From an uncultured Clostridia bacterium (GTDB lineage Bacteria > Bacillota > Clostridia > Christensenellales > Borkfalkiaceae): a stretch of DNA of 34,130 nt. The stretch spans positions 1 to 34,130 of the forward strand of contig CALVPY010000024.1 in NCBI GenBank assembly GCA_944354535.1, read 5' to 3'. The translations under genes were made by a program, and so were the position numbers. The notes under the pieces are model-generated. The model had not been told where the DNA came from. It was given only the letters and a program-made list of their open reading frames with translations, and searched no databases. This document shows, piece after piece, positions 190-34,044 of the stretch (position 1 is the stretch's first letter; every line of letters begins with the position of its first letter).

Positions 190-227
190 CGGGGAAGAGT
201 TTGTATCGAAACGTTCTTATCCACAGG

Positions 228-261
228 AAAGAGCGCTCCCTTTTATCGGGGAGCGCTCTTT
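228..261. terminator. Bidirectional intrinsic terminator, identical to the one at 884-917
   Basis: A 13-bp stem (AAAGAGCGCTCCC paired with its complement) encloses the loop TTTTATCG and is followed by TTTTGTTC on the plus strand; on the minus strand the stem is also followed by a short T-rich stretch. It lies between two converging genes, the unknown gene ending at 189 and the membrane protein gene ending at 283, so it can serve both. Confidence 0.8.
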
Positions 262-282
262 TGTTCGATCGGTAAAATTATG

Positions 283-13281: not shown

Positions 13282-13294
13282 ATCCCTTATTATG

Positions 13295-13354
13295 GCCTCC
13301 CCTGTGTAAGGGGAGGTGGTTTGCCTTCGGCAAGCCGGAGGGGTTGTTGATCCC
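13295..13354. repeat. E1 palindromic repeat, copy A
   Basis: First hairpin CCTCCCC (13296-13302), loop TGTGTAA, GGGGAGG (13310-13316). Second hairpin GGTTTGCC/GGCAAGCC. Then GGAGGGGTTGTTGATCCC. It begins 14 bases after the rlmH stop and could end that transcript. Confidence 0.75.
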
Positions 13355-13359
13355 CTTTC

Positions 13360-13404
13360 TTTCCGCCGAATGCGTTATTTCAAGGCTCATTCGTTTCACT
13401 CCGC
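13360..13404. repeat. R4 45-bp repeat, left copy
   Basis: Matches 13761-13805 with a single mismatch (C versus A at the seventh base). Each copy contains GAATG and CATTC as inverted ends of a 25-base core. The two copies are 401 bases apart in direct orientation and each follows an E1 element. Confidence 0.85.
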
Positions 13405-13499: not shown

Positions 13500-13614
13500 T
13501 TCTCGCGCGGTAGTGCCCGCGCTCGGTCAGGAAACGGCGCGTACAATGCGCCGTTTCCAAGCTTGAAAGCGGTCAAAGCCACACCGTGGCTTTGCAAAGA
13601 AAGCGCTTTCTCGC
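13500..13614 (-). repeat. E2 structured repeat, copy b (reverse orientation)
   Basis: Read on the minus strand this is the same element as 23593-23707, about 80% identical by eye. It has three hairpins: CAAAGCCA/TGGCTTTG, GGAAACGGCGC/GCGCCGTTTCC around a loop beginning ATTGTAC, and CGCGG/CCGCG. The surrounding 13405-13499 and 13615-13620 hold further short palindromes and no convincing gene. Confidence 0.75.
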
Positions 13615-13620
13615 CCTTTT

Positions 13621-13657
13621 CCCAAAAAATCTTTTGCTGCACAAAATCTTTTTTGGG
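13621..13657. repeat. E3 hairpin repeat, copy 2
   Basis: CCCAAAAAA (13621-13629) pairs with TTTTTTGGG (13649-13657) around the same TCTTTTGC...CAAAATC core as the copy at 4771-4807. The outer stem bases differ but stay paired. Confidence 0.65.
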
Positions 13658-13670
13658 AGCCCTATCCTAT

Positions 13671-13722
13671 AAGCCCTCCCTGTGTAAGGGAGGGTGCCGA
13701 GCGAAGCGAGGCGGGAGGGTTG
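13671..13722. repeat. E1 palindromic repeat, copy B
   Basis: CCCTCCC (13674-13680), loop TGTGTAA, GGGAGGG (13688-13694), then a GCCGAGC-GAA-GCGAGGC second element and GGGAGGGTTGT. It immediately follows E3 copy 2. Confidence 0.7.
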
Positions 13723-13760
13723 TAAAGGTCGGGGTCACGCATAACGACAACTCTTCCGCC

Positions 13761-13805
13761 TTTCCGACGAATGCGTTATTTCAAGGCTCATTCGTTTCAC
13801 TCCGC
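13761..13805. repeat. R4 45-bp repeat, right copy
   Basis: See 13360-13404. This copy ends 25 bases before the ATG of the M14 peptidase gene and supplies most of a false N-terminal extension of that frame. Confidence 0.85.
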
Positions 13806-23571: not shown

Positions 23572-23790
23572 TTAGCCTCCCCTGTGTAAGGGGTGAGCAA
23601 GTGCTTTCTTGGCAAAGCCCTGGTGGGGCTTTGACCGCTTGCGAACTTGGAAATTTCCCATTGTGGGGAAATTTCCTGACCGAAGCGCGGTCTCTACCGC
23701 GCGAGACGGTGTCTCATCATTCGGCGAATGCCGATGATGAGACGGAGGGGTTGTTGATCCCGAAGGGGACGGAAGGAGTTATCTCACGAA
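23572..23790. repeat. E1 palindromic repeat, copy C, interrupted by an E2 element
   Basis: The left part is TTTAGCCTCCCCTGTGTAAG and GGG to 23593. After an E2 insertion the rest resumes with GGTG, a long second stem GTCTCATCAT-T-CGGC (23711-23725) paired with GCCGATGATGAGAC (23730-23743), then GGAGGGGTTGTTGATCCC and CGGAAGGAGT. The tail overlaps the stop of the aldo-keto reductase gene at 23784. No gene is seen in 23514-23783. Confidence 0.75.
23593..23707 (+). repeat. E2 structured repeat, copy a (nested in E1 copy C)
   Basis: Three hairpins: CAAAGCCC (23613-23620)/GGGCTTTG (23626-23633), GGAAATTTCCC (23649-23659)/GGGAAATTTCC (23666-23676) with loop ATTGTG, and CGCGG/CCGCG near 23686-23701. 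It aligns over its whole length with the reverse strand of 13500-13614. Confidence 0.75.
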
Positions 23791-33949: not shown

Positions 33950-34044
33950 ATTTTAGCCTCCCCTGTGTAAGGGGAGGTGGCTTGCCGAAGGCAAGACGGA
34001 GGGGTTGTCGATCCCTCAGGAGCGGAAGGAGTCACTTCACAAAT
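33950..34044. repeat. E1 palindromic repeat, copy D
   Basis: The cleanest copy. First hairpin CCTCCCC/GGGGAGG around TGTGTAA, then TGG, the second hairpin CTTGCC/GGCAAG, ACGGAGGGGTTGT, GATCCC and CGGAAGGAGT followed by a TCAC end. It lies 26 bases after the M28 peptidase stop. Confidence 0.8.

What the first reader, a model, noticed from the sequence alone, without database searches (positions are those of the whole stretch)
23593..23707. E2: 115-bp three-hairpin element in two opposite-orientation copies with compensatory stem changes
23593-23707 (plus) and 13500-13614 (minus) align end to end. In the central stem the outer GGAAA/TTTCC and the loop start ATTGT are constant, while the inner six pairs are TTTCCC/GGGAAA in one copy and CGGCGC/GCGCCG in the other. 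The first stem also shows a compensated pair (C-G versus A-T). Such changes are unexpected for a decaying repeat and suggest structure matters. Peptides read from both copies look alike only because the DNA is alike.
Basis: partly seen in the sequence, partly recalled or inferred. Interest (0 to 1): 0.75.

Follow-up and report, generated by a model that had tools for sequence, protein, structure and literature searches.

The report
Folded, jumping DNA repeat family
A 113-letter stretch of DNA, present in dozens of copies in an uncultured bacterium, keeps the same three-hairpin shape while its sequence changes, and looks like a tiny mobile element that hops into other repeats with the help of an enzyme not yet found.

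Summary
E2 is 113 nt (23594-23706 plus; 13501-13613 minus), one of 37 strong copies in its genome. It occurs in 17 of 37 genomes of its genus in one survey, once in another genus of the family, and in none of 274 genomes taken to lie outside the family (strict filters). Stems covary massively: 97.9% of cells paired, 21 of 36 pairs changed on both sides within the genome.

Copies have sharp ends, no inverted-repeat ends, no target duplication, sit after RRGGG inside other palindromic repeats, are missing at matching sites, and form exact head-to-tail arrays in two relatives. None of the 37 lies in a called ORF. G.T and A.C mismatches are about equally common, unlike RNase P RNA.

Best reading: a passenger mobile element, REPIN-like in logic, whose folded, probably single-stranded, DNA is recognised by an enzyme in trans. 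That enzyme is unidentified: Y1 transposase was not found in this genome and does not track E2 among relatives. A small-RNA role is not excluded, but is not favoured.

The parts
23594..23706 (+). E2 element, plus copy (113 nt)
   Evidence: CM E 1.8e-23; ends from 142 copies and from identity drop-off between host classes
23594..23645 (+). Hairpin 1: Y1-R52 pair, tandem GA/GA, 7-bp outer stem, 5' bulge, inner stem
   Evidence: pair 1-52 T-A:19, C-G:9, T-G:1 of 29, across GA/GA that is invariant but for one nearly invariant column
23649..23676 (+). Hairpin 2 (middle): outer GGAAA/TTTCC, inner six pairs variable, loop ATTGT
   Evidence: 7 of 11 pairs change on both sides, 99.1% of cells paired
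23677..23683 (+). Conserved linker TGACCGA
   Evidence: TG[AC]CCG in 137 of 144 distinct copies; T84 G85 C87 C88 G89 invariant in 24 representatives
23685..23702 (+). Hairpin 3: GCGCGG/CCGCGC (this copy has an extra A before the stem)
   Evidence: replaced as a whole in three copies, L024, L028, L035
23703..23706 (+). 3' end GAGA
   Evidence: G, A, G, A at 133, 139, 141, 139 of 142 copies
23575..23593 (+). Left part of host repeat E1 (GCCTCCCCTGTGTAAGGGG)
   Evidence: same stretch in E1 copies without E2 at 13294 and 33955
23707..23755 (+). Right part of host repeat E1 (CGGTGTCTC...GGAGGGGTTGTT)
   Evidence: E1+E2 not seen in the matching gap of the five relatives fetched
13501..13613 (-). E2 element, minus copy (113 nt)
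   Evidence: CM E 1.9e-24
13614..13662 (-). Left hairpin of host repeat E3 (GGGCTCCCAAAAAAG...TTTTTTGGGAAAAGGG)
   Evidence: E3-type repeat without E2 around window 4764, minus strand
13294..13354 (+). E1 repeat without E2 (empty counterpart)
   Evidence: family D5
33955..34015 (+). E1 repeat without E2 (empty counterpart)
   Evidence: family D5

Best explanation
E2 is a small non-autonomous mobile element. Shown: it is a dispersed family with fixed ends, it lies in several unlike host repeats directly after RRGGG, it is missing from matching sites, it forms exact head-to-tail arrays, and its three-hairpin fold is kept while the stem sequences turn over. Inferred: an enzyme supplied in trans recognises the folded strand, most likely single-stranded DNA at replication or repair. 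It reads the first and last hairpin, whose feet share the same tandem G.A cap (Y-GA-stem-GA-R), cuts just outside each foot (after ..GGG on the left, after GAGA on the right), and rejoins the piece after another RRGG or GAGA site. Selection acts when a copy spreads, so stems change in compensated fashion between spreading lineages, while resident copies decay.
For: Family and fold. Ends: left flank G at -3, -2, -1 in 130, 139, 117 of 142 copies; right end GAGA. Between copies in different host classes identity is 89-100% over the last 13 positions inside, 41 and 57% at the first two outside and 11-38% beyond (on the left the GGG is built into my class definition). Hosts: 48 E1-type, 16 E3-type, 7 E4-type, 15 unclassed of 86. 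Missing at matching sites: the gene gap that holds E1+E2 in the window shows neither in G034, G026, G061, G033 and G005, the five fetched (read by eye), although G034, G026 and G061 carry E2 elsewhere. L131 (filled) against L145 (empty) matches over 503 nt on the left and 108 nt on the right. Arrays: three exact 117-118 nt units in G034, two in G026, junction GAGA|CGAGC or GAGT|CGAGC. Sets of copies with near-equal scores in G025, G170, G242 (eight of the G170 and G242 copies read). Feet: YGA start in 122, GAR after hairpin 1 in 124, both in 118 of 144; pair 1-52 covaries. Decay is not RNA-like: G.T:A.C 18:16 distinct states against 35:8 in RNase P RNA of the same genus, Fisher p = 0.013.
Against: No mobilising enzyme is identified. 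Y1_Tnp has no match in this genome and does not track E2: 5 of 17 carriers against 4 of 20 others among G000-G036 (p = 0.70). On the other side, one E2 match in G017 lies about 1.2 kb from a Y1 gene (L093); the two Y1 loci that I read (L092, L093) look to me like ordinary IS200 with other ends. Lagging-strand bias is not significant (19 of 30, p = 0.20; tallied by hand, test). In the G170 and G242 copies read, the flanks are shared too, so there the moving unit may be the host repeat with E2 inside. A hairpin ending just left of E2 is only modestly commoner than at control positions (95 of 110 sampled copies against 150 of 220 at -5 kcal/mol) and the right flank gives the same 95 of 110. Most filled/empty comparisons rest on short repeat matches; the three E4-type ones also differ over 10-15 bases right of E2. 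The G.T/A.C test restricted to covarying pairs is weaker (12:13 against 20:7, p = 0.087).
Confidence: 0.6

Rival explanations
1. E2 is a functional structured RNA (small RNA or mRNA-tail element) kept because its transcript folds.
For: Massive covariation and conserved unpaired stretches (bulge, TGACCGA, GAGA) across the genus; enrichment between convergent genes (14 of 35 copies with two neighbours against 47 of 293 gaps of 150 bp or more).
Against: G.U is hardly commoner than A.C; no Rfam match over E2; copies lie both ways relative to tandem neighbours (11 same, 7 opposite); TTTT within 15 nt downstream in 1 of 144; copies are nested in other dispersed repeats.
Confidence: 0.15
2. The stems match because quasi-palindrome correction (template switching; recalled) copies one arm onto the other; no selection on structure.
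For: Whole half-stems differ between copies; mismatches are nearly strand-symmetric; hairpin alleles reassort among copies (all four combinations in 39 of 420, 5 of 150 and 31 of 280 squares of common alleles).
Against: The tandem G.A mismatches at the feet and the bulge persist in most copies while neighbouring pairs covary; such correction would be expected to erase them. The same architecture holds in subfamilies with unlike stem sequences.
Confidence: 0.12
3. E2 does not move by itself; it is an inner module of larger repeats (E1, E3, E4) that carry it.
For: Shared flanks in the G170 and G242 copies read; in the window the whole E1+E2 composite is what the five fetched relatives lack.
Against: One E2 subfamily sits in at least three unlike host repeats at the same RRGGG| point, with E2-free counterparts of each (the E4 ones are imperfect); exact E2-only tandem arrays.
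Confidence: 0.13

Closest known systems
REPINs / REP-RAYT systems (PMC3116915, PMC8266576; passages seen)
   Same: Short, intergenic, many copies per genome; hairpins kept while stems change with compensation; non-autonomous; a short tag next to the hairpin foot.
   Different: 113 nt with three unlike hairpins, not two inverted REPs; RRGGG/GAGA and G.A feet instead of GTAG; no Y1_Tnp match in this genome.
IS200/IS605-derived non-autonomous elements (PMC6006769; passages seen; other features recalled)
   Same: No terminal inverted repeats, no target duplication, insertion next to a short fixed sequence, structured ends.
   Different: No TnpA found here; lagging-strand bias not significant; no autonomous relative with E2 ends found.
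Pneumococcal BOX / RUP / SPRITE (PMC3049150; passages seen)
   Same: Folded, sometimes modular, nested interspersed repeats of one bacterial lineage.
   Different: E2 has no terminal inverted repeats and no terminator-like T-run; sequence and fold not compared directly.
Bacillus cereus bcr1-bcr18 repeats (PMC3446304; passages seen)
   Same: Group-specific intergenic repeats; bcr1-bcr3 described there as MITE-like.
   Different: No sequence relation tested; about half of the repeat copies are transcribed there, unknown here.

Membership tests
MITE | terminal inverted repeats | tested here: not met
   5' TGAGCAAGTGCTT against reverse-complemented 3' end TCTCGCGCGGTAG
MITE | target site duplication | tested here: not met
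   no repeated flank in the comparisons or the flank counts
REPIN | two REPs in inverted orientation with a GTAG-type tag | tested here: not met
   three different hairpins; left RRGGG, right GAGA
REPIN | RAYT (Y1_Tnp) in the same genome | tested here: not met
   no PF01797 match at E <= 0.01 in this 92.8% complete genome; 5 of 11 E2 genomes have one
IS200/IS605 non-autonomous derivative | no TIR, no TSD, fixed short target | tested here: met
IS200/IS605 non-autonomous derivative | ends shared with an autonomous TnpA element | tested here: inconclusive
   two Y1 loci read by eye have other ends (L092, L093); R1 matches in 1 of 6 Y1 loci, 1.2 kb away; the rest not read
IS200/IS605 non-autonomous derivative | lagging-strand insertion bias | tested here: inconclusive
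   19 of 30 copies on contigs with clear skew
Structured non-coding RNA | covariation | tested here: met
Structured non-coding RNA | excess of G.U over A.C in stems | tested here: not met
Structured non-coding RNA | expression | not testable with these tools
   no transcriptome at hand
Intrinsic terminator | hairpin followed by T-run | tested here: not met
   TTTT within 15 nt downstream in 1 of 144 copies
Rfam families (4227 models) | covariance-model match over E2 | tested here: not met
   window at gathering thresholds; nine loci at E <= 1: no match lies on an E2 copy

The most novel reading that the evidence does not exclude
E2 is the passenger of an undescribed hairpin-recombining enzyme that is not a Y1 transposase and reads two end hairpins by a shared tandem-G.A foot (Y-GA-stem-GA-R), inserting after RRGG or GAGA, also directly behind itself. 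The covarying stems would be the record of that structure-only recognition.
Probability: 0.22. Interest if true: 0.75.

Novelty: new variant of a known kind. Interest (0 to 1): 0.52.

Why it matters
It shows very strong structure conservation with free turnover of stem sequence in a non-coding mobile repeat of an uncultured lineage. Covariation of this strength is usually read as proof of a functional RNA; here the near-symmetric mismatches, empty sites and tandem arrays point to selection at the moment of spreading, which is a caution for RNA-motif discovery. If the mobilising enzyme is not a Y1 transposase, a new hairpin recombination system may be found in genomes with many near-identical copies (G025, G170, G242).

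Tried and rejected
Y1 transposase as mobiliser: no match here, no co-occurrence, the two loci read have other ends. Reverse transcriptase: no match here; 4 of 11 E2 genomes have one. IS110-type (PF02371): 1 of 11. Phage carriage: an exact pattern for the third hairpin of the window's subfamily has no match in IMG/VR; other subfamilies were not searched there. Rfam: nothing on E2. Target-hairpin requirement: modest excess, and the right flank gives the same. Lagging-strand bias: 19 to 11, not significant. E2 copies with a gene inside: none among the enlarged copies that I inspected, most of which carry an E3 insertion. Published account: 'Gallimonas' with repeat terms returned, of relevance, only a list of names (listing); repeat-family searches were made; no listing or passage that I saw describes E2. 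Papers: passages only of PMC3116915, PMC3049150, PMC10969869, PMC8266576, PMC6006769, PMC3446304; outline and abstract of PMC2267715; PMC3733652 listing only.

Rows and choices: L023 (internal deletion) was left out of A2, made from 29 of the 30 copies. The 87-row set is A2 plus distinct matches of 111-119 nt holding TGACCGA and GCGCGAGA; one search drops 3 chimeric rows and the pair 19-41. start from 171 matches and keep 142 and 144 after removing duplicates, missing flanks and lengths outside 105-125; one search also required GACC or GCCC, and its hairpin test used a random 110 of the 142. Seven of the 67 matches in A3 were weak (E 0.15-0.86) and were counted. The eleven filled/empty comparisons were picked by eye from 377 pairings, whose printout was cut. 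In the strand tally I left out contigs C24, C26, C40, C41 and C48 (7 of 37 copies), where skew and gene direction disagreed or the contig was short. RNase P control: 27 of 30 fetched loci used (L232, L242, L243 not used); its structure came from RNAalifold, which may favour G.U. Gene names uppP and aldo/keto reductase, and 'IS200', are my recognition, not a call.

Full report
What is there. A BLAST search of the window's genome (G000, 1.93 Mb, 53 contigs, 92.8% complete) gave 56 matches, some of them fragments. From 29 full copies I made an alignment (A2) and a covariance model (R1). R1 finds 41 places at E <= 1 in the genome, 37 of them below 1e-8; several are split by other repeats.

Structure. 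The fold is three hairpins. Hairpin 1 has a Y-R closing pair, a tandem GA/GA mismatch, a 7-bp outer stem, a one-sided bulge and an inner stem with a short loop. Hairpin 2 is GGAAA-variable-ATTGT here. Then come the linker TGACCGA, hairpin 3, and GAGA. In 29 copies 97.9% of pair cells are standard (shuffles 83.0%, slid controls 32-54%), with 21 of 36 pairs changed on both sides and a covariation score of 0.437 against 0.165; the count of further pair types does not exceed shuffles. Over matches from relatives all 36 pairs change on both sides (shuffles 33.5; 17 of 500 reach it), score 0.826 against 0.196, but hairpin 2 is weaker there (85.8% of cells paired, the outermost pair unpaired in 23 of 43) and that alignment was fitted to the model. 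A plain MAFFT alignment of 24 representatives keeps invariant only one G, parts of TGACCG and the final AGA. Most of 37 copies folded singly show the same plan; L086 folds otherwise, the G026/G034-type middle hairpin is weak, and the G008/G009/G025/G011/G031 types have Watson-Crick pairs or other bases in place of GA/GA. A truncated piece of a second-subfamily copy folded only modestly (z -1.8).

Distribution. With R1, 17 of 61 genomes match, all among the 37 of the same genus (own included), and 0 of 24 from other families. A second draw of 297 genomes of the order gives 4: three of the genus (of 10 listed), one single copy in another genus of the family (of 13 listed), and none in the other 274, which I take to lie outside the family from the order of the listing; only 12 candidates per genome were scored, with strict filters. 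G061 carries E2-like matches by BLAST. An exact pattern for the third hairpin of the window's subfamily hits four assemblies in a scan of 84,980 species genomes: Candidatus Gallimonas gallistercoris and three uncultured Clostridia (the tool may leave out the window's own genome). It has no hit in IMG/VR.

Ends and targets. Over 142 distinct copies the left flank reads RRGGG and the element ends GAGA. Copies lie within other palindromic repeats: E1 (CCTCCCC..GGGG|AGG..GGAGGGGTTGTT), E3 (GGGCTCCC..GGGAAGAGG|) and E4 (..CGTGAGGGG|): 48, 16 and 7 of 86, with 15 unclassed, several of which look like variants of the same. E1 and E3 without E2 occur in the same window (13294-13354, 33955-34015, around 4764). 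Eleven filled/empty comparisons, picked by eye, show no duplication: for E1 and E3 an extra G on the left and changes of a few bases on the right; for the three E4-type pairs the right side differs over 10-15 bases. Most are comparisons of repeats; L131 against L145 has a 503-nt left match. The composite at 23575-23755 is not seen in the matching gap between the same two genes in the five relatives that I fetched (G034, G026, G061, G033, G005) of 38 genomes with any match (alignment of two of them is poor within the gap). In G034 three and in G026 two E2 units stand head to tail with no spacer. This fixes the unit length and shows that the element's own 3' end can be the left neighbour of the next copy.

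RNA or DNA. Among 84 distinct rows of the subfamily, stems hold G.T 41 and A.C 27 cells (18 and 16 distinct states). RNase P RNA from 27 genomes of the same genus, treated alike, holds 313 and 12 (35 and 8) (Fisher p = 0.013 on states, 0.087 when restricted to covarying pairs). Resident copies therefore do not show the G.U tolerance of a functional transcript. This speaks about decay after insertion; it does not by itself prove DNA-level recognition. E2 folds well as single-stranded DNA on both strands.

Context. None of 37 copies lies in a called ORF; 14 of 35 with two neighbours are between convergent genes against 47 of 293 gaps of 150 bp or more (p = 0.0006, or 0.004 weighted by length). 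There is no T-run after hairpin 3 (TTTT in 1 of 144), so it is not an intrinsic terminator. Leading/lagging placement is 11 to 19 (not significant).

Modules. Common alleles of the outer, inner and middle stems occur in many combinations, and L024, L028 and L035 carry the third hairpin of the second subfamily (L090/L091 type). Hairpins therefore seem to reassort between copies.

Mechanism. The two end hairpins share a foot: Y-GA-stem-GA-R at hairpin 1 (both halves in 118 of 144 copies) and C-GA-stem-GA-G at hairpin 3 (CCGA in 134, GAGA end in 134 of 144). The ends of the element lie just outside each foot. Insertion next to a fixed short sequence, lack of inverted-repeat ends and structured ends are what IS200/IS605 and REP elements show (PMC6006769, PMC8266576; passages seen, partly recalled). 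In REPINs the intervening stem is also kept only as a hairpin, with compensatory changes called common (PMC3116915; passage seen). Hence the proposal of a passenger element. The weak point is the enzyme: Y1_Tnp, reverse transcriptase and IS110-type families have no match in this genome and in 6, 7 and 10 of 11 E2 genomes searched, this one included. This may be loss after spreading, gaps in draft genomes, or an enzyme of another kind.

Verdict. A real, strongly structure-conserved, mobile, nested repeat family, not matched in Rfam and not seen in my paper searches, limited in these surveys to one bacterial family. It is of a known general kind (small folded non-autonomous repeats) but meets neither the MITE nor the REPIN definition.

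Noticed in passing
window 13294-13354, 33955-34015, 13672-13696, 23575-23755: E1 repeat family (CCTCCCC..GGGGAGG..hairpin..GGAGGGGTTGTT), itself dispersed; similar repeats flank E2 in relatives.
   Followed up: partly
L036 (G000:C3:26776-26997), L031, L033, L111, L124, L141: E3 repeats inserted inside E2, after TTTC, with loss of some E2 bases (read by eye).
   Followed up: partly
L039 near 1011, L013 near 1740, L017 near 1660, left flank in L002: A recurrent truncated E2: its first bases (to TTCTTG) joined to ATTTGTAAA or a like stretch.
   Followed up: no
window 13359-13404 and 13760-13805: 46-nt direct repeat, 98% identical, beside the minus E2 copy (D17).
   Followed up: no
window 227-262 and 883-918: Two near-identical 36-nt hairpin repeats, perhaps terminators (I2).
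   Followed up: no
G170:C41, C54, C57: Three RVT_1 matches in very long open frames (1109-1761 aa) in a genome with many near-identical E2 copies.
   Followed up: no
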